A model generated the notes under the pieces. The model was not told the origin of the DNA. It did not search any database and saw nothing but the letters and a program-made list of their open reading frames with translations. Positions 3,989 through 38,874 of a stretch of DNA of 40,399 nucleotides are shown one piece after another; positions within the stretch are counted from its first letter, which is position 1; each line of letters begins with the position of its first letter. This DNA is from Cytophagales bacterium (GTDB lineage: Bacteria > Bacteroidota > Bacteroidia > Cytophagales > UBA9547). The stretch is from contig JACMRH010000021.1 of NCBI GenBank assembly GCA_014376535.1, forward strand, positions 1 through 40,399, given 5' to 3'. A program made the translations under genes and the position numbers.

Positions 3989-6900
3989 ATGAAAAAACTA
4001 ATAATAACATATATATTCAGCTTACTTTACATTTTTGAAGGCTTCTCTCAAACAGCTTTTTTCAATGTAAGTAAAAGTGCTGATTGCAACATTTTGAAGA
4101 TTAGCATAGATGCTTCATCTTCAAAAGGCAAAGCTCCACTTACCTATTTCTGGGATTTTGGAAATGGAAATACTACTTCAGGTTCTGATAAAGCTGTTGT
4201 TGACGCTATATATGTTCAACCAGGTGAGCCTGTTATTAGTTTATATGTGAAAGACGCAAATGGCATTAAAAGCGATGTCTTCAATAAAACAGTTTATATA
4301 CACTCTGGCCCAAAAATAGATTTTGATGTAAGCGGAACACAAACATGTTTAGGTCAAACTGTTCAGTTTAAAAATAAAACAATTGCTGGTAGTTCTAAAA
4401 TTACTGGATACATATGGAATATTGGAAACAATATTTCCTTAAATGAAAAAGATCCATCATATACTTTCACAAATACAGGTAATTACGATGTTTCACTGGT
4501 TGTAACAGATGAAAATGGTTGTAACGTAAACCTAAAGAAATCAAATCTTGTATCGGTTTCAAATTCATTTAAAACAGAATTTAAAGCTGTAAATACTTCT
4601 GCTTGTTCCCTACCCTTTGAAACTGAGTATAAAGACTTAACTGATTATCAATCTCTTTCGGGACATAAATTCTCGTACAATTGGAACTTTGGTGACGGCT
4701 CAACTTCTACTGAACAAAACCCTAAAAAAACCTATTCAAATCCTGGTTCAATGGATGTACAATTGACCGTAACTGATTTAAATTCAAAATGTTATTCTAC
4801 AGAAAAAGTTGATAATTATATAAATCTCGATTTTAGAAAACCTCTTTTAAATATTCAATTTAAATCAAAGAATTGTACTGAATATATCTACAAGTTTAGT
4901 CCAAATGTTAAAGATTTGCCAATAGGGACTATAAAGACTTTCGATTATGGTGATGGCACAAATTATAACCTGAATGATACAGAGTCTGAGGTAATGCATT
5001 CTTACTTTAGTTCTGGCAAAAAATATATAAAACTCACCTTTAGCAATCCTAAAAATGCGAATTGTTCCCAAAGCAGTGTTGATAGTATAATTGTCCCTGA
5101 TAATGGACTTGATTTTAAAGCAAGCAATCCAAATGGATGTAAAATCCCATTTTCTACTTCATTTTCCACTTTAAATATTAATGATGCTGAATCTTACACC
5201 TGGGATTTTGGCGATGGAACAAGTTCTGCTGAAGCAAATCCATCTAAAACTTTCGTTCAAAATGGAAATTTTACAATCAAGCTGAAAGTTAAAAGTAAAT
5301 CTGGCTGCACCTATAATTTTGAAAAACCAGAATATATTAAAGTTGGCCCGTTAAAAGCTTCATTTACCTCTGATGCTAAGAGGATCCAAAGCTTGCCAAA
5401 TGAATTTGAGAAACATCCCATTGCAGATCAGTCTGTTTTATATGGAGGTTGCGTCCCTTTTGAAGTGAATTTTGTTAATACTTCTCCAGCAGGAAGCAAC
5501 ACTACTTCGAGTTGGGATTTTGGTGATGGCACAAAATCATCTTCTTCTAGTGCCAATATCAGTCATACTTATTTAAAACAGGGTATTTACTCTCCAACCT
5601 TATCAATAAAGGATGATCAGAATTGTGAGGCAATTTTTACTTGTAAAGATTGTGTAAAAGCCGGTGAGCCACCTGTTGCATCAATAGAACTTTCTGGTCC
5701 TGACACAGTTTGTTGTCTTTACGAAAAAAGTTTTGCTGCTAAAATTAAACCTGATCATTTTGATTTTCTTTGGTATAACATAGTATTAAATGACGGGGGA
5801 CCATCACCTGGAATAACCCAGGCCTATTATAAAAATTCTGCTGGAAATTGGAATTTCGAAGATAACACAGGCACTATTTTACCTTTTGCGCCTGCTGGAT
5901 TAGGTTTGAATTATCAGCAGTCAACATTTGCGCTACCTTCTGGAAATCAGCCAGACTTCTACTTTTATGCCTATAAAAATGGTTGCGCAACTAAAATAGA
6001 AAAACCTAAATACCAAACACATTTGTTGCCTTGGGGAACGTTTAAACCCCTGCCTTGCAATGAAGAAGAAGAATTAAAAGGTGGAGACATTCTTGATTTT
6101 AACAAAGTTGGAGGAAATTGGATCTTAGGCAAAGACACCAAAGGAAATCCTATGAAGTTGTCGAAAGCTACAGTAACATTTGAGTTTAACAGTAAAAGTG
6201 GTTGTAAAATGGCAAAAGTCAGTAAAACTTTTACTGCTGCTGAATTAGGCTTTGATATTGAAGCTGGTTCTTTTCAGAAAATACAGCAATTAGGATTATT
6301 TCCTAAAGTTAAAATACCTGAATGCGCAGGAAAAGGTGATGAATTATTAAGCACAACATATTTATATACACATGATGATGCTACGAAAAGTTACCAAAAT
6401 GGAAAATGTGAATGCGAAGAACATTGGCCTTATAAAATCGGTGCAAAGAAAAAACCATCCTATACCTTAAATAACAGGAAGGGCTGTGCTCCGCTTGAAG
6501 TTGAATTCAGTTCTAAATCTGATACTTCAGAAATAATTTATGTGTTTGAAAATGGATTAACTTTTCAAGGAACTAAGTTCAAAAAGAGTTTCTCAGATGC
6601 TGGTGTTTATAGGTTTAAAACTGTCTCAAGCCATTGTTCAGAAGGAAAATGGACAGACTCAATCATTGTTTCCAATCCAAAAGCCAAATTTTCCATAAAC
6701 CAGTCAGCTTTCTGTTTAAAACCCAATTCTTCAAGTAATGAAAACAAGCAATTGATAGTTACGGACCATTCCGATGGTGGTGCCTACCTCATTAGTAAAT
6801 GGAATTGGGACTTAGGGAATGGGAAAGTGATTACAAAAAGCGACAGTAGTAAATTAGATATAACTCTAACTGAGAAAGATGTTGCAGCAGATACAAAAAA

Positions 6901-8980
6901 ACCTAGATTTATTAAACTCACAGTTTCAGATTTAAACAACTGTAAATCAACCGATTCTATTCAGGTATTTTTCAGAAAGACAACATCAAAACTGGACATT
7001 GTTAAAACCACTGGTTGCTATGATAGTTTAAAAGTTTCCTTAGCAGAATTAAACAAAGGTGGATTCCCTCCATACACCGGAAATTTCTCATTATCAAGGA
7101 TAAATGGCAACGAACAAATAAAAATGACAGAGGCTGATATCAATACAATTAACCAAAAAGCACTCTTACTTGATACTAATGGGATTTATAAACTAAGTGT
7201 AAATATTACAAGTGATGCATTAGGAACATGCATGAGCCAATTTGATACTGTTATCGCAGTAAAATATCAGTCGTTAGCTCCCAACTTCAAAATAAAAGGA
7301 AAAACTCAATTCAGTTGTGTTCCATCCCTGGTAGAAGCATTTGATGCATCTGCCAAATTTGCAGGACGGGAAATCAAATCCTGGAATTGGAAGTTTATAA
7401 ATCAATCAACCAACCAGGAAGTAAATGGTACAGGCGAGAAACCAGTTCCTTTTGCCCTGACTGATTCAGGGTATTACAGCTTAAATCTTACCATCATTGA
7501 TGAATCTGGTTGCAAAAAATCAATAAATAAGGATTCAGTAATTTTTATAAATGATTTAAGAGGAAAAATTACCGAGATACCAAAGGCACTTTGCCCTGAT
7601 GAAATGGGCCAGTTTACAGGATTATCAACCAATGCTCAAAATTACTTTTGGGATTTTGGTGATGGTATAGTTGGATCCGGATTAAATGTAAAACACAGTT
7701 ACAAATCTACAGGAGAGAAAAACATTTCATTCATTGTCACAGACACCTCTAATTGTAAAAGATCTTATACAGGCAAATTACTGGTTAAAAAAGCTCCGGT
7801 TTTTGAATTGGGAAATGACACATTAATCTGCGAGAAAGAACAAATAATATATAGCGTCCCAAAAGATTTAGGGTATGTATATAAATGGAATAATGGCAAT
7901 CTAACCTCTTCCATAACAATAAATTCGGAAGGTTTATACACACTTTTGATTCAGGATACTATTATAAAATGTAATTACAAAGATTCTGTGAAAGTATCTA
8001 TATCTAAACTTCCAACAGTTTCTATTGACTCTGTACCTCCAGTTTGTAAAGGAGAAGACCTTGTACTATCAGGCCATACAAATGGCCTTGGAAAGAAATT
8101 TGAATGGATACGAAATAATCTGGTTGTATTTAAAACTACTTTAAAATATAATATGGTTGTTGAAGACAATCCACTGATCACCTTAAATATCATCAATGCA
8201 GATGGTTGTAATATCAAAGACAGCATTCGTTTAAACATTTTACAACGACCAGTAGTGACACTTTCTAATCAAAGTGTTTGCCCTGAAGATTCGATTATAC
8301 TAAAACCTCAGGTGCAAAACCTCAATCCATTGTTTAAGTGGCACTGGACATTTAACTCCCAAAGAGTGCAGGGAGATACATTTAATTTCAAATCAGCTAA
8401 AGTAGGTGGTTTATATGGAGTTACTTATGGAAAAGAAAATTGCCTATCAAATGCCGTAGCATTGTTAAATATTCATCCTCTACCGGATACAAAAACCAAT
8501 CCCGAAAAAGTAAATTATTGTGAAGAGTTTGGCTCAATTTATTTGGATGGAGGAAAAGCCCACTCCTATTTATGGTTTCATGAAGGAGAAACTCAAAAGG
8601 ATATTTCTATTTCAAAACCAGGCCTTTATATTCTTAAACTTGGTACAGAACATAACTGCTATAAATTAGATACAGTTGAAGTAGAAAGCCGATGTGCTCC
8701 TCAGATTTTTGTTCCAACTGCCTTTACGCCGGAGCTTGCCGGAGAAAACAAAATCCACAAAATATTTGGATACAACATTGGTTCTTTTTCAATAGTAATC
8801 TTCAACAGATGGGGTGAAATTATTTATGAATCAAAAGATATAAAACAACCCTGGGATGGATATTATAGAAATGAATTAATGCCATCAGGCGTATATCCCT
8901 GGATCATAAAATATACAGGAAACAACCCAGACCACACCGAAATAAAGCAATTAGAAGGTAAAGTAGTTTTAGAAAGATGA
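3989..8980 (+). CDS. Giant secreted PKD-repeat protein with gliding/T9SS C-terminal domain
   Basis: A 1663-residue exported protein. A signal peptide covers residues 1-20 (MKKLIITYIF start, FSQ before cleavage). PKD-type beta-sandwich repeats follow, seen as WDFGDG-like motifs near residues 55, 143, 232, 320, 405, 510, about 940 and about 1220. A Cys-containing stretch at about 560-850 lacks the PKD motif and contains CKDC, VCCLY and CECEEHW. The last 96 residues (1568-1663: IFVPTAFTP, FNRWGE, WDGYY, MPSGVYPW) match the gliding-motility-associated C-terminal domain, a type B sorting signal for T9SS. The inferred role is a large surface adhesin or motility filament of the SprB/CHU class. The stop overlaps the PorP/SprF start by 4 bp, the usual pairing for such cargo. 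Ligand unknown. Confidence 0.9.
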   Translation: MKKLIITYIFSLLYIFEGFSQTAFFNVSKSADCNILKISIDASSSKGKAPLTYFWDFGNGNTTSGSDKAVVDAIYVQPGEPVISLYVKDANGIKSDVFNKTVYIHSGPKIDFDVSGTQTCLGQTVQFKNKTIAGSSKITGYIWNIGNNISLNEKDPSYTFTNTGNYDVSLVVTDENGCNVNLKKSNLVSVSNSFKTEFKAVNTSACSLPFETEYKDLTDYQSLSGHKFSYNWNFGDGSTSTEQNPKKTYSNPGSMDVQLTVTDLNSKCYSTEKVDNYINLDFRKPLLNIQFKSKNCTEYIYKFSPNVKDLPIGTIKTFDYGDGTNYNLNDTESEVMHSYFSSGKKYIKLTFSNPKNANCSQSSVDSIIVPDNGLDFKASNPNGCKIPFSTSFSTLNINDAESYTWDFGDGTSSAEANPSKTFVQNGNFTIKLKVKSKSGCTYNFEKPEYIKVGPLKASFTSDAKRIQSLPNEFEKHPIADQSVLYGGCVPFEVNFVNTSPAGSNTTSSWDFGDGTKSSSSSANISHTYLKQGIYSPTLSIKDDQNCEAIFTCKDCVKAGEPPVASIELSGPDTVCCLYEKSFAAKIKPDHFDFLWYNIVLNDGGPSPGITQAYYKNSAGNWNFEDNTGTILPFAPAGLGLNYQQSTFALPSGNQPDFYFYAYKNGCATKIEKPKYQTHLLPWGTFKPLPCNEEEELKGGDILDFNKVGGNWILGKDTKGNPMKLSKATVTFEFNSKSGCKMAKVSKTFTAAELGFDIEAGSFQKIQQLGLFPKVKIPECAGKGDELLSTTYLYTHDDATKSYQNGKCECEEHWPYKIGAKKKPSYTLNNRKGCAPLEVEFSSKSDTSEIIYVFENGLTFQGTKFKKSFSDAGVYRFKTVSSHCSEGKWTDSIIVSNPKAKFSINQSAFCLKPNSSSNENKQLIVTDHSDGGAYLISKWNWDLGNGKVITKSDSSKLDITLTEKDVAADTKKPRFIKLTVSDLNNCKSTDSIQVFFRKTTSKLDIVKTTGCYDSLKVSLAELNKGGFPPYTGNFSLSRINGNEQIKMTEADINTINQKALLLDTNGIYKLSVNITSDALGTCMSQFDTVIAVKYQSLAPNFKIKGKTQFSCVPSLVEAFDASAKFAGREIKSWNWKFINQSTNQEVNGTGEKPVPFALTDSGYYSLNLTIIDESGCKKSINKDSVIFINDLRGKITEIPKALCPDEMGQFTGLSTNAQNYFWDFGDGIVGSGLNVKHSYKSTGEKNISFIVTDTSNCKRSYTGKLLVKKAPVFELGNDTLICEKEQIIYSVPKDLGYVYKWNNGNLTSSITINSEGLYTLLIQDTIIKCNYKDSVKVSISKLPTVSIDSVPPVCKGEDLVLSGHTNGLGKKFEWIRNNLVVFKTTLKYNMVVEDNPLITLNIINADGCNIKDSIRLNILQRPVVTLSNQSVCPEDSIILKPQVQNLNPLFKWHWTFNSQRVQGDTFNFKSAKVGGLYGVTYGKENCLSNAVALLNIHPLPDTKTNPEKVNYCEEFGSIYLDGGKAHSYLWFHEGETQKDISISKPGLYILKLGTEHNCYKLDTVEVESRCAPQIFVPTAFTPELAGENKIHKIFGYNIGSFSIVIFNRWGEIIYESKDIKQPWDGYYRNELMPSGVYPWIIKYTGNNPDHTEIKQLEGKVVLER

Positions 8981-19969: not shown

Positions 19970-19974
19970 GGTTA

Positions 19975-20113
19975 TTTAGGCTTAGGTTGAATTTAAATTA
20001 AGGTTTAGGTAGACTTTAAGTTTTGCTTATTGTAACTAATAATTTCCGGCTGATGTCATAGGCTGAATAAAGTTGTGATTTAAGTTCTTATTAAGGTTTA
20101 GATAAAATTTAAG
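19975..20113. repeat. Three related TTAGG(T/A)-type repeats in the porin leader
   Basis: Three copies of a ~15-bp element: TTAGGTTGAATTTAA (19982-19996), TTAGGTAGACTTTAA (20005-20019) and TTAGATAAAATTTAA (20098-20112). Copies 1 and 2 are 23 bp apart. The 17-mer ATTAAGGTTTAGGTAGA at 19997-20013 recurs exactly, inverted, at 28268-28284 in the porX trailer. All lie inside the predicted transcribed leader. Confidence 0.75.
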
Positions 20114-20199: not shown

Positions 20200-20443
20200 T
20201 AGAGGTTCGAAAATATAAGACTATTTTTGAAAAAACATTAAATAACTCCAAGTCTACCTCTTAAAAACATCTATTTTTAAATAAAATCATACATTTTAAG
20301 TTTTATAGGCTAAAATTGAATACTTATCTAATTTAGAAATGCCACTATTTTAAATTCAAATCTGTAGTATTTTTATAACAAAAGTAATATCCACCTCATA
20401 TTTGAATTGTTTATCTTAATTTTATTGATTGTTAATCCTATCT

Positions 20444-21601
20444 ATGCAGTTTCCACGTTTAAAGATCAAAAAAGGTAAAGAAAAATCGCTATACAGGTTT
20501 CATCCCTGGATATTTAGTGGCGCTGTGGATTCAATAGAGGAATTAAACAATGATTGTATCGCTGAAGTAACTGATTTTCAAGGAAGTATTATCGGTTATG
20601 GATTTGTAGAATTAAAAAGTCAGATTATTTGCAGGGTATTTGAGTTTTGTAAAGACCCTTTTGAAATTGATGGAGAATATTGGAGAAATAAGCTTTTGGC
20701 CTCGCATAAGTTTAAACTCTCATTACTTAACCTCGAGGAAACGAATTGTTTCAGGTTGGTACATGCAGAAGGTGACTATTTCCCAGGACTCATTGTAGAT
20801 ATATATGATAAGGTTGCCGTAATTCAATTCCGGACAAATGGAGTTTGGAAACTTCAGGGCATAATTGTTCAAATATTAAATTCACTGGGTTATAAATATG
20901 TATTCAGCAAAAGCCCAGCCTATTCCGATTGGCAACAAGGATGGTTAGGGGAACCCGGGCCAGACCATGTTGTAGTAAAAGAAAACAATATTCTATTCTC
21001 AATAGATATTTTGAAAGGCCAAAAAACAGGTTTCTTCCTTGACCAAAGGGAAAACAGGAAACTTCTTGCAGAGTATTCAAAAGGAAAAAAAGTTCTTAAT
21101 TGTTTTTCGTATACAGGAGGATTTTCTATGTATGCTATCAAAGGTGAGGCAGTTAGTGTTGATTCTGTTGATATTTCAAAAGATGCGACTGAAAATGCCA
21201 GAAAAAATGCAGAATTAAATGATTACAGTAAAAATCATAACCCAATTGCTGCAGATTGCTTTGAGTATTTACGAAAAGCTGATAAAGATTATGATGTTAT
21301 TATTTTAGATCCTCCTGCTTTTTGTAAAGATATCAGGAGCGTTCCTCAGGCCTCCAGGGGATACAAAGACATAAATCTATCAGCTATGAAAATAATAAAA
21401 TCTGGGAGTTTATTATTCACTTTTTCATGCTCTCAGCATATCAGTAAAGATTTATTTCAAAAAATAGTTTTTGGTGCTGCCAATGATTCCGGTCGTAAAG
21501 TAAGAATTATACACCAATTAGGTCAAGGCCCCGACCATCCAATCAACATTTACCATCCAGAGGGTGATTATTTGAAGGGGTTGGTTTTGGAAGTTAGTTG
21601 A
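20444..21601 (+). CDS. Class I SAM-dependent rRNA methyltransferase, RlmI/YccW-type
   Basis: A 385-residue enzyme predicted to make m5C in 23S rRNA. An N-terminal PUA domain (KKGKEKSLYRFHPWIFSGAV, residues ~9-28) precedes the central RlmI-type domain (EGDYFPGLIVDIYD). The catalytic SAM-binding fold has LNCFSYTGGFSMYA (motif I, about 220-235), VDSVDIS and DPPAFCK (motif IV), and LFTFSCSQHIS carries the Cys of motif VI. The first in-frame codon is TTG at 20429. The ATG at 20444 is preferred because MQFPRLKIKKG matches the family start. It is convergent with the YcxB/nadC operon, and a 7-bp-periodic repeat begins at its stop codon. RlmI is favoured over RlmK or RlmO by length and PUA position. 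Confidence 0.88.
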   Translation: MQFPRLKIKKGKEKSLYRFHPWIFSGAVDSIEELNNDCIAEVTDFQGSIIGYGFVELKSQIICRVFEFCKDPFEIDGEYWRNKLLASHKFKLSLLNLEETNCFRLVHAEGDYFPGLIVDIYDKVAVIQFRTNGVWKLQGIIVQILNSLGYKYVFSKSPAYSDWQQGWLGEPGPDHVVVKENNILFSIDILKGQKTGFFLDQRENRKLLAEYSKGKKVLNCFSYTGGFSMYAIKGEAVSVDSVDISKDATENARKNAELNDYSKNHNPIAADCFEYLRKADKDYDVIILDPPAFCKDIRSVPQASRGYKDINLSAMKIIKSGSLLFTFSCSQHISKDLFQKIVFGAANDSGRKVRIIHQLGQGPDHPINIYHPEGDYLKGLVLEVS

Positions 21602-21797
21602 CAGTTATTGGTGTACGGTTGACAGTAAACAGTTGAAGAGTAAACCGTTAGCTGGAAAAGTTGAACTGTGATATAGGGAAATTAGTGGTCAAATGACAAA
21701 TTACAGCAGCGATCTCAAATATTGTGAAATCCCACTGTCAACTGTCAACTGTTCACTGTCAACCAATCACAGTCAACCGTATACTGAAAACCTATCT
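21598..21797. repeat. Opposed arrays of imperfect heptanucleotide repeats filling a convergent spacer
   Basis: The left arm (21598-21646) reads as consecutive heptads TTGACAG, TTATTGG, TGTACGG, TTGACAG, TAAACAG, TTGAAGA, GTAAACC. The right arm (21735-21797) reads CTGTCAA, CTGTCAA, CTGTTCA, CTGTCAA, CCAATCA, CAGTCAA, CCGTATA, CTGAAAA, CCTATCT. The arms are inverted relative to each other and share CAACTGTT(T/C)ACTGTCAACC. The left arm starts in the rlmI-type stop codon; the right arm ends in the stop of the convergent YcxB gene. About 88 bp of unique DNA lies between. Confidence 0.85.
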
Positions 21798-22278
21798 AGG
21801 CTACAGAAATCAAATTTTTACGCTTCAAAAGAGCTTCAAAGAATTTAATATCGCTTTCAGAATTAAACATACTGAAAGGAAAATGTAAGAACTGAGCTTT
21901 GTTAACTATCAGCAAAAAGGCGTTTGCTTGCTTTTCAGCTTTTTGAATTGTGTCCCAATTCATTTGCATTCCTTGTTTTGTGTTTAGTTTTATTACAATA
22001 AAACGTGAATCTATTTCATAAGCAAGTTTTTCAAACATTACCTTGTTTTGTTCCATTTGGGTAACTCCAACAAATTGAATAGCCCAAAATGCTACAAATA
22101 ATAAAGCTGCAATTATTCCAAACCCTATATACCAGCCACCATATGGTACAAAAAAGCCCAGGATTATAAATGCCAAAGGACCAAAGCCATACCACCAGGT
22201 TTTTTTCAGAACCATCAATAAGGCCATTTTTATATATTCATTCTTCTTTAACTGGTACTTTTTTGTCTTAATTGTCAT
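21796..22278 (-). CDS. YcxB-like membrane protein
   Basis: A 160-residue protein with a cytosolic N-terminus, two adjacent transmembrane helices (about residues 30-48 and 50-72) and a C-terminal soluble beta-rich domain with QMNWDTIQKAEKQANAFLLI and FLHFPFSMF. This order matches the YcxB-like family (two helices plus a PH-like cytosolic domain), of unknown biochemical role. It is the second gene of an operon with nadC (17-bp gap), which gives no direct functional hint. The family assignment rests on the helix-pair layout and the W..I / F.L pattern. Confidence 0.75.
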   Translation of the reverse strand: MTIKTKKYQLKKNEYIKMALLMVLKKTWWYGFGPLAFIILGFFVPYGGWYIGFGIIAALLFVAFWAIQFVGVTQMEQNKVMFEKLAYEIDSRFIVIKLNTKQGMQMNWDTIQKAEKQANAFLLIVNKAQFLHFPFSMFNSESDIKFFEALLKRKNLISVA

Positions 22279-26582: not shown

Positions 26583-27977
26583 TTATCTTCCTCCAGGAAC
26601 ACTACCGCCACCACCTCCACTAGAATTACCTCCACCACCGGAGTTGCCTCCGCCACCAGAACCACCACCACCACTCATTCTGTTACTTCCACCTGAATTT
26701 CCTCCACCAAAATCACCTCCGCCACGTTGACCACCGCCATTACCTCCCTGGTTATTATTCCATGAATTAGATGGCCTCGAGAAGACGTCATTTGATCTAT
26801 CCCTGCTTGGAACTGAAAAATTTCTATCAGCAGCAGGAGTGTCCTGATTTCTTTGATTTTGGTCAGATTGATAAGTGTTGTTTGACTGATTAGAAGGTTG
26901 AGGATTTGAGTATCCATCCCGTGAAGGGACAGAGTGACCATATTGTTCACCCCCACCTCTGCTGTTACTATTTGGATTTGTCGGATAAGATCCTCCACCT
27001 CTTGAACCTCCAATGTTTGAATTGTCTATGCTTGCTGGTCTTGAACCATTGTTAAAATTTGAGTTGTGGTCAGAATAATTATTATTTCTTCCAGAGGGTG
27101 AAGATCTGTCATTTAAAGGTCCATAATTAACTGTTGATCCGGCACCATTGTTGTTGGAATAAGAATTTACTGGTACATAAACAGCTGGTCTCCAACCATA
27201 ATAAGGGTTACCCCAGGCACCCCATGAATATGGATTATATCCATAACCTCCGTATCCTCCAAAACCAGAACCCCAGCCAGAATAACTGTTATAGCCTACG
27301 AACCAACCTGGTGAATAATAATTTCCGAAAGAATATGGATTATAAAATCCGTTTCCAAAACCATAATTGTTGAAACCATAGCCTCCACCAAAACCACCAT
27401 ATCCGCTGTAGCCATAGTTATTCCATCCATTATAGGACGAATTGTTCCAGCCGTAACCTGTATTCCATCCAGAATTATAACCAAATCCTACACTTGTGTT
27501 CCAACCACCATAATTATTAAAACCAATAGAAGGTGCGATTGAGTATTGGGAACCGTATGCTTTTCTTCGAAGATTTCTTTTGTTGCTCCTGTACCATCGA
27601 ACATCTTCTGTTTGATTGTCAGTAACATTATAGGTTTTGTTATTCGACTGCGTTGTTACTGAACCAGAGTTTGTTGAATTTGAAATCTTCTCATTTTTTT
27701 CTGCCTCTATATATTTATTAGTATAGCCAGGTTCGTTAAACCTATTAATTTCCTGATTAGAAGTATTAGTATTGGATTGAGGATTAGCCTGTCCTGCCTG
27801 TGGATAAGAATAATATGTTTTTTCACCAGCAGATTTTTCCTTAGCCTTTTCTTTGCGTTTGGCTATATCTCTTGAGTTAATATATAAATCGTCTGTCTCG
27901 TCCTGTGCTTGAAGTGGCGAAACCAATATGGCTAATGAAAAGCCTAGAATTGCGGAAATTGCAGCTATTGATTTCAT
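26583..27977 (-). CDS. Secreted Gly/Asn/Ser/aromatic-rich low-complexity protein
   Basis: A 464-residue protein of unknown function. A signal peptide (1-24, SPLQAQ) is followed by a charged Lys/Glu segment (about 25-60), a Ser/Asn/Thr linker (60-120), and a basic patch WYRSNKRNLRRKAYGS near 127-142. A ~130-residue run of GYGW, NNYG, GGYG and GFY repeats follows, then a polar Asn/Ser/Arg region, and a C-terminus that is almost pure Gly/Ser with Asn. There are no cysteines. The composition resembles prion-like or structural matrix proteins, so surface or matrix association is inferred. It heads an operon with the FadL-type barrel gene 18 bp downstream. Although repetitive, the frame is open throughout with a proper signal peptide, so it is a real gene. 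Confidence 0.8.
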   Translation of the reverse strand: MKSIAAISAILGFSLAILVSPLQAQDETDDLYINSRDIAKRKEKAKEKSAGEKTYYSYPQAGQANPQSNTNTSNQEINRFNEPGYTNKYIEAEKNEKISNSTNSGSVTTQSNNKTYNVTDNQTEDVRWYRSNKRNLRRKAYGSQYSIAPSIGFNNYGGWNTSVGFGYNSGWNTGYGWNNSSYNGWNNYGYSGYGGFGGGYGFNNYGFGNGFYNPYSFGNYYSPGWFVGYNSYSGWGSGFGGYGGYGYNPYSWGAWGNPYYGWRPAVYVPVNSYSNNNGAGSTVNYGPLNDRSSPSGRNNNYSDHNSNFNNGSRPASIDNSNIGGSRGGGSYPTNPNSNSRGGGEQYGHSVPSRDGYSNPQPSNQSNNTYQSDQNQRNQDTPAADRNFSVPSRDRSNDVFSRPSNSWNNNQGGNGGGQRGGGDFGGGNSGGSNRMSGGGGSGGGGNSGGGGNSSGGGGGSVPGGR

Positions 27978-37664: not shown

Positions 37665-37670
37665 TTTTTT

Positions 37671-37756
37671 AGTTAAGAGTTAACAGTCTATAGTTGTTGC
37701 ACATGCAAATTTCTGAATTCAATCTTGATACTCAATACTAAGTACTCAATACTAGG
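37671..37756. repeat. Opposed heptanucleotide repeats between rbfA and the 173-aa gene
   Basis: The left arm (37671-37698) reads AGTTAAG, AGTTAAC, AGTCTAT, AGTTGTT. The right arm (37729-37756) reads TACTCAA, TACTAAG, TACTCAA, TACTAGG. AGT recurs every 7 bp on the left and ACT every 7 bp on the right, so the arms are inverted in type. The right arm includes the stop codon of the minus-strand gene at 37752. Confidence 0.8.
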
Positions 37757-38273
37757 AAGGGAACATTAATTGCAAATTGAGCCAAAGCTCGGTTTTAAGA
37801 TCTTTGTTTCCAGCTATCCTGTCCATTGAATCTGCAAGCAATATCAACTTCTCGCTTACAGTTTGAAGTTTATATTTTTGTTGAAATCCTGAAAAGCTGG
37901 TTCCAAAAAGAATTATTTTTTTACTGTTTATTTCATCCGCTTTAGAAAACGTAATGTCATCCTGGTTTAAAACAGTAAAATCAGTATCCTTTAATTTTAA
38001 TGCATTAAAAACCAATTTGTTAAATGTTTCAAGAGCTATGCCAGCCAACGGTTTGTCGGTAATGAACAAGACATTGTTGAAAGTCTGACTTTTTGGTATT
38101 TCTTTGACAGGTTCCAGAATTTTTACTTCTTCCTGTTCTTCTATTAAAAACTCTTCCGATTCTTCAGCTTGTTCAATTTCAGATGTTGCTTCTTCTATTG
38201 GCTTAAGCACATCATTAGCAAGAAGATAAAGTTCTTCATTGATAAACATGCTTAATTCACCAAGAGTCATCAT
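37752..38273 (-). CDS. Acidic protein of unknown function (173 aa)
   Basis: Not recognised with certainty. Residues 1-20 form a helix, and residues ~26-58 are strongly Glu-rich (EATSEIEQAEESEEFLIEEQ). The rest is an alpha/beta domain with VLFITDKPLAG, KIILFGTSFSGFQ and a C-terminal helix DLKTELWLNLQLMF. The layout (acidic linker, then a Rossmann-like small domain ending in a KxxLW helix) recalls small Bacteroidetes proteins sometimes compared with the DNA polymerase III psi subunit; this is a weak, memory-based suggestion. It lies directly downstream of the IscA gene with no spacer (ATG adjacent to the iscA TAA), so it is cotranscribed. The second codon is also ATG, giving an alternative start. 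Confidence 0.75.
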   Translation of the reverse strand: MMTLGELSMFINEELYLLANDVLKPIEEATSEIEQAEESEEFLIEEQEEVKILEPVKEIPKSQTFNNVLFITDKPLAGIALETFNKLVFNALKLKDTDFTVLNQDDITFSKADEINSKKIILFGTSFSGFQQKYKLQTVSEKLILLADSMDRIAGNKDLKTELWLNLQLMFPS

Positions 38274-38740: not shown

Positions 38741-38768
38741 ACTATTAACTCTTCACTATTAACTAGAT
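38741..38768. repeat. Heptanucleotide repeat block
   Basis: Four consecutive heptads: ACTATTA, ACTCTTC, ACTATTA, ACTAGAT. ACT recurs every 7 bp, the same register as the right arms of the other two heptad loci. It directly precedes the palindromic element. Confidence 0.75.
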
Positions 38769-38773
38769 ACAGG

Positions 38774-38874
38774 GCGCCGTTTCCGGCTATTCATTACAAT
38801 CTTTTTGCGGGAACATTTAGCTTTGATTTGCAAAAGCTTAAAGCAAAAAGGATTTGCATTTCTATCCGGGGCGC
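38774..38874. repeat. Palindromic intergenic element (~100 bp)
   Basis: Nested inverted repeats: outer GCGCC (38774-38778) with GGCGC (38870-38874); CCGG on both sides; perfect CTTTTTGC (38801-38808) with GCAAAAAG (38843-38850); an inner AGCTTT (38819-38824) with AAAGCT (38833-38838). Outer and inner parts are markedly more GC-rich than the surrounding spacer. It has no coding potential. Confidence 0.75.

What the first reader, a model, noticed from the sequence alone, without database searches (positions are those of the whole stretch)
21598..21797. Stop-to-stop heptanucleotide repeats between convergent genes
The whole convergent spacer begins and ends with imperfect repeats of exact 7-bp period (TTGACAG-type on the left, CTGTCAA-type on the right), in inverted orientation, with arms that reach into the stop codons of both flanking genes. 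The shared core CAACTGTT(T/C)ACTGTCAACC would fold into a long hairpin in either transcript. Ordinary Rho-independent terminators, REP elements and CRISPRs do not have this 7-bp phase. The repeats could be a transcription-end or mRNA-stability device, a protein-binding array, or a replication-slippage product confined to gene ends.
Basis: seen in the sequence. Interest (0 to 1): 0.68.

Follow-up and report, generated by a model that had tools for sequence, protein, structure and literature searches.

The report
Paired seven-base repeats filling gene gaps
The gap between two genes in this Bacteroidota bacterium is a pair of degenerate seven-base repeat tracts facing each other, one of an estimated 330 such tracts in its genome; similar tracts are known from cyanobacteria, Xanthomonas and Beggiatoa, but how they arise is still unexplained.

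Summary
The 194-bp gap between two convergent stop codons carries a TTGACAG-type tract on the left and a CTGTCAA-type tract on the right, in 7-bp phase and inverted orientation. A same-genus genome has only 2 bp between the same stops. It is not a one-off and not specific to stop codons: the genome has about 330 such tracts in several heptad families with a shared grammar (roughly AYTNNNW), abutting starts as well as stops, a few inside genes. The strongest rule is polarity: the AGT (G-rich) strand runs away from each gene edge towards the middle of the gap. Neighbouring tracts of opposite polarity face each other in 69 of 72 cases, here and in cyanobacteria and other bacteria. The two arms often carry different heptads, and about half the pairs do not fold unusually well, so a hairpin or terminator is not the general purpose. 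Reverse transcriptase, RAYT transposase, Ku and XisH do not account for the tracts. Best reading: products of iterative 7-nt copying of 3' ends at gaps or breaks, tolerated between genes, with incidental hairpins. Heptamer arrays, including facing pairs, are already described in Xanthomonas; this is a new variant.

The parts
20429..21601 (+). Left flanking gene: 23S rRNA methyltransferase, RlmI-like (PUA + SAM methyltransferase); its TGA stop lies in the first TTGACAG unit
   Evidence: Pfam PF10672, PF17785; NCBIfam RlmI models below their cut-offs; translation
21592..21633 (-). Left arm: AGT-type heptads on the + strand (AGTTGAC units), beginning in the end of the left gene
   Evidence: Grammar scan; lag-7 identity 0.43-0.54
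21634..21733 (.). Middle of the gap, with only traces of 7-bp phase (lag-7 identity 0.29-0.46, not always the highest lag)
   Evidence: Windowed lag identity
21734..21796 (+). Right arm: ACT-type heptads on the + strand (ACTGTCA units), ending at the right gene
   Evidence: Tandem repeat period 7; grammar scan
21796..22278 (-). Right flanking gene: YcxB-like membrane protein; its stop is native, not made by the repeat
   Evidence: Pfam PF14317; alignment with relative
37667..37694 (-). Second element in the window, left arm (AGTTAAG/AGTTAAC units), abutting a gene start
37709..37757 (+). Second element, right arm (ACTCAAT/ACTAAGT units, a different heptad family), running into the neighbouring gene's stop
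   Evidence: orthologous sites in two relatives
38741..38782 (+). Single ACT-type tract (ACTATTA units) in a divergent gap

Best explanation
The gap is a paired heptanucleotide element. Two largely independent 7-bp tracts each start at a gene edge and run inward with the AGT-rich strand 5'->3' towards the middle, so that they face each other. Shown: the 7-bp phase, the polarity, the abutment to gene edges, the frequent mismatch of the two arms' heptads, the decay of unit similarity with distance, and absence of the element from one relative. Inferred: each tract grew by repeated 7-nt copying of the neighbouring unit on a 3'-ending strand at a gap or break in non-coding DNA, and the two extended ends were then joined; this would leave a telomere-like polarity without a telomerase. 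Such filler is tolerated between genes. Where the two arms carry the same heptad, as here, the gap can also form a hairpin in both transcripts and may incidentally end or protect them. The enzyme is unknown.
For: Polarity: opposite-strand neighbours within 250 bp face each other 20:0 in this genome, 2:0 in G005 and 47:3 in public loci; grammar-free version oriented by G-C skew 10:0, 3:0, 20:3, and almost no such pairs at lags 6, 8 and 9. Single tracts follow the same rule at gene edges: minus type at left edges 8 of 9, plus type at right edges 13 of 14, at starts as well as stops. Arms are mostly unrelated: mean rank of own partner 0.39 and 0.43 where 0.5 is random. Identity at variable positions falls from 0.54 (adjacent units) to about 0.3 (four to six units apart) in own tracts and 0.74 to 0.59 in public ones. 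Relative G001 has 2 bp where this genome has 194. At the thioredoxin-like gene's end G001 has an ordinary terminator hairpin that is gone where the tracts stand.
Against: No break or joining event was seen. Nothing tested tracks with the tracts: Ku only in G000, G002, G024 and G028, no reverse transcriptase found in this genome, XisH only in two tract-poor relatives. At site D both arms switched heptad together between species, which fits hairpin upkeep or conversion between arms better than independent ends. Some tracts are length-stable over long times (purM). Gene calls are simple ORF calls and the grammar was derived from this genome.
Confidence: 0.4

Rival explanations
1. A selected nucleic-acid device: heptads act as an RNA or DNA signal (hairpin, transcript end, mRNA stabiliser, or protein-binding array), with ACT-type on the sense strand before starts and AGT-type on the sense strand after stops.
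For: Architecture is kept while units change at orthologous sites D and F; at D the arms match each other in every species. The window element folds with z -3.45/-4.51. Half of 20 elements have z below -2. TAACTGA sets in Beggiatoaceae sit just before start codons (PMC4679880).
Against: Half the elements do not fold well; arms usually differ; convergent gaps are only mildly favoured; no terminator-like site or Rfam family inside the element; single tracts and tracts inside genes exist.
Confidence: 0.25
2. Ordinary replication slippage from chance seeds, with selection removing tracts from genes; polarity a by-product of sequence preferences at gene edges (C/A-rich before starts, G/T-rich after stops).
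For: Unit similarity decays with distance. Heptamers are the commonest long simple repeats in many bacteria according to Mrazek 2007, as cited in PMC4679880. Site A arm lengths differ by two whole units between G000 and G002.
Against: Shared unit grammar across the genome and across phyla; polarity also at left starts and right starts and in an intragenic pair; lag 7 exceeds other lags strongly; the purM stretch is length-stable.
Confidence: 0.22
3. A mobile miniature element (MITE, or REP/BIME moved by a RAYT transposase) whose terminal inverted repeats are the heptad arms.
For: Dispersed, inverted arms, about 75-205 bp, element-free site in a relative. RAYT-like genes are multicopy in this genome.
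Against: No shared interior was noticed, arms can meet within 1-15 bp, and arms can differ in sequence. None of 25 RAYT-like genes checked has a heptad tract in its 200-bp flanks; many have their own hairpin repeats. No target duplication seen at the window site.
Confidence: 0.05

Closest known systems
GGGAATC heptamer repeats of Xanthomonas (and GGGGA(T/C)T of Nostoc), Rehm et al. 2015, PMC4692102
   Same: 7-bp units, mostly intergenic; 70 and 75 cases of two repeats in convergent orientation on opposite strands; repeats lie nearer to the ORF on their 5' side whatever its direction - the same polarity as here; locations conserved between species
   Different: One G-rich unit able to form G-quadruplexes there; here many A/T-rich degenerate units in one genome, different units in the two arms; few pairs reported in Nostoc
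TAACTGA direct repeats of Beggiatoaceae, Cyanobacteria and five Bacteroidetes, MacGregor 2015, PMC4679880
   Same: 7-bp unit of the same grammar (ACTGATA in register), intergenic, just before start codons on the sense strand, some inside ORFs; longer sets in some Bacteroidetes and Cyanobacteria
   Different: One fixed unit, related heptamers rare there; one indirect repeat reported among 169 sets; proposed as RNA-protein binding sites
STRR heptanucleotides of cyanobacteria
   Same: Tandem heptanucleotides dispersed between genes; the AACHGTC unit itself is found mostly in cyanobacteria in the public scan
   Different: Original description not read here; classed from general knowledge and from citations in PMC4692102
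Interstitial telomere fusions of eukaryotes
   Same: G-rich strand runs 5'->3' towards the junction from both sides (analogy from general knowledge)
   Different: Many unit sequences in one genome, no reverse transcriptase found in the genome

Membership tests
Bacterial heptameric intergenic repeat arrays (STRR / Xanthomonas / TAACTGA kind) | Direct repeats with a 7-bp period, in excess of other periods | tested here: met
Bacterial heptameric intergenic repeat arrays (STRR / Xanthomonas / TAACTGA kind) | Many dispersed, mostly intergenic loci | tested here: met
Xanthomonas-type paired heptamers | Facing pairs; each repeat nearest to the ORF on its 5' (G-strand) side | tested here: met
   against PMC4692102
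Xanthomonas-type paired heptamers | G-tracts able to form G-quadruplexes | tested here: not met
   Units such as TTGACAG have no run of three G
REP/BIME moved by RAYT | Repeats flank the RAYT gene | tested here: not met
   0 of 25 genes flanked by heptad tracts within 200 bp
Intrinsic (Rho-independent) terminator | GC-rich stem followed by a T run | tested here: not met
   No site inside 21592-21796
Telomerase-made repeats | Reverse transcriptase with a template RNA | tested here: not met
   No RVT_1 match in this genome of about 94% completeness; template RNA not searched
Known RNA family (Rfam) | Score above gathering threshold | tested here: not met
   Only a chance-level miRNA hit, 18.7 bits against 70

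The most novel reading that the evidence does not exclude
An unrecognised DNA-end process shared by Bacteroidota, Cyanobacteria and other bacteria extends 3' ends in 7-nt steps with C-poor, AGT-containing units and then joins the ends, leaving telomere-fusion-like scars between genes, without a reverse transcriptase.
Probability: 0.2. Interest if true: 0.88.

Novelty: new variant of a known kind. Interest (0 to 1): 0.5.

Why it matters
Heptamer arrays have been noticed piecemeal in several bacterial groups without a cause. One polarity rule that holds across many unit sequences and several phyla, with arms that are largely independent in sequence, narrows the possible causes and makes them testable: a mechanism has to account for tracts that run from gene edges inward with one fixed strand, in 7-nt steps. 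The tracts also fill about 10% of gene gaps here, so they shape gene ends, including stop codons.

Tried and rejected
Reverse transcriptase as the maker: no RVT_1 match in this genome or in tract-bearing G008, G035, G038 and G040. RAYT transposases: multicopy, but not flanked by heptad tracts. Ku-type end joining as a requirement: no link to tract number. XisH, suggested by co-occurrence remarks in PMC4679880: found only in two tract-poor relatives. Universal hairpin or terminator: rejected as the general purpose. The tool's reversed-pattern control was uninformative for ACTGTCA units, because reversed (not complemented) they give the same heptad in another register. Comparing related cyanobacterial loci for sites with and without tracts gave no clean case. 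In G005 and G044 many tracts are AATT-type, whose orientation is hard to call, so they add little to the polarity count.

Full report
Observation. The gap between the RlmI-like gene (stop TGA 21599-21601) and the convergent YcxB-like gene (stop 21796-21798) is 194 bp and shows 7-bp phase (lag-7 identity 0.45, with peaks at 14, 21 and 28), carried mainly by the two arms 21592-21633 and 21734-21796. The arms are inverted, 78% complementary over 40 nt. The gap folds better than shuffles in both directions (z -3.45 and -4.51). The host is a Bacteroidota bacterium, judged from type IX secretion proteins in the window.

A same-genus relative, G001, has the same gene pair with 2 bp between the two stops, while the nearer relative G002 carries TTGACAGTAAA shortly after the left gene's stop before its contig ends. 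The 194 bp is therefore extra sequence relative to G001. The direction of change (gain here or loss there) is inferred, not proven.

Genome-wide. In 538 kb taken without regard to repeats, lag 7 is the dominant long-repeat period, and four-copy trinucleotide chains at spacing 7 are led by AAC, ACT and GTA, whereas AAA leads at spacings 6, 8, 9 and 11. Units include ACHGTCA, ACTNTTA, ACTNRRT (ACTCAAT, ACTAAGT, ACTTGAT), ACTC[AG]CA and ATTCATA. The pattern ACTNNNWACTNNNWACTNNNWACT has about 70 exact places in the genome. A scan with this grammar gives 36 tracts of score >=16 against 2 in shuffled sequence, about 330 per genome. The scan was tuned on this genome, so the count is an estimate. In 231 gaps of at least 20 bp, 24 carry a tract.

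Architecture. When two tracts of opposite polarity are neighbours they face each other with the AGT strand running inward: 20 of 20 in this genome (a mixture of unbiased contigs and loci fetched because they hold a tract), 2 of 2 in G005, 47 of 50 in loci from cyanobacteria, Bacteroidota, Desulfobacterales and others. The result stands when tracts are found by lag alone and oriented by G-C skew (10:0, 3:0, 20:3), and lags 6, 8 and 9 give almost no pairs. Tracts obey the same rule relative to the nearest gene edge, at starts and at stops. So the finding's stop-to-stop emphasis is a special case.

Arms and folding. Own-partner complementarity is only modestly above that of re-paired arms (mean rank 0.39 in this genome, p = 0.06; 0.43 in public loci, p = 0.0002, driven by a minority of long matched pairs). 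About half the paired elements fold unusually well and half do not. Hairpins are therefore a property of some elements, including this one.

Change over time. At the orthologous sites that could be read, G002 shares the G000 site. At sites D and F all three species carry a facing pair with different heptads; at D the two arms match each other in each species; at E only the right arm changed; at A the outgroup has a normal terminator instead; in MetRS the right arm is shared and the left arm is in G000 only; the stretch inside the purM-like gene is present in all three without length change. Tracts can thus be old and length-stable while their units turn over, by a route not resolved here.

Cause. 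Unit similarity falls with distance along a tract, as expected if each unit was copied from its neighbour. Combined with inward polarity and loosely related arms, the picture is most simply one of two 3' ends extended in 7-nt steps and then joined. This is inference. No enzyme candidate survived: RVT_1 is absent from several tract-bearing genomes, Y1/RAYT genes have other neighbours, and Ku and XisH do not track with tract number.

Relation to what is known. Xanthomonas GGGAATC heptamers show the same facing pairs and the same nearness to the ORF on their 5' side (PMC4692102), and TAACTGA sets in Beggiatoaceae and some Bacteroidetes fit the same grammar (PMC4679880). This is the same kind of thing with a different, more varied set of units. 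What is added is the polarity rule over many units and phyla, the loose coupling of the arms, and the weakening of four candidate makers within one order.

Noticed in passing
L300, L301, L303, L304, L305, L069, L063 (own genome); L306-L319 (relatives): Many RAYT-like Y1 transposase genes in this order, many beside hairpin repeats of their own (for example AGCTAGCGCGAGTTTGCAACTCGTGC around L301).
   Followed up: partly
L327 around 1640-1720 against L057:520-612: Behind a thioredoxin-like gene a relative has an ordinary terminator hairpin (CCCCAAGATAATCTTGGGGTTTTTTT) where this genome has a facing heptad pair.
   Followed up: partly
G000:C474:6840-6863: A heptad tract lies about 30 bp before the domain match of the genome's only detected Ku gene (6894-7385).
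   Followed up: no
L133:4857-5127 and 5813-6107: A Desulfobacterales contig has two very long facing heptad pairs (GGTTTAC / ACCGTAA units) with only 8-12 bp between the arms.
   Followed up: no
L379-L398: Twenty stretches of viral-collection contigs contain the AACHGTC array; whether these are true viral genomes or host DNA was not checked.
   Followed up: no
window 26590-26739: 18-bp period repeat (CCACCAGAATTACCTCCA) inside a coding region.
   Followed up: no
window 19974-20022: 23-bp direct repeat, two copies, between genes.
   Followed up: no
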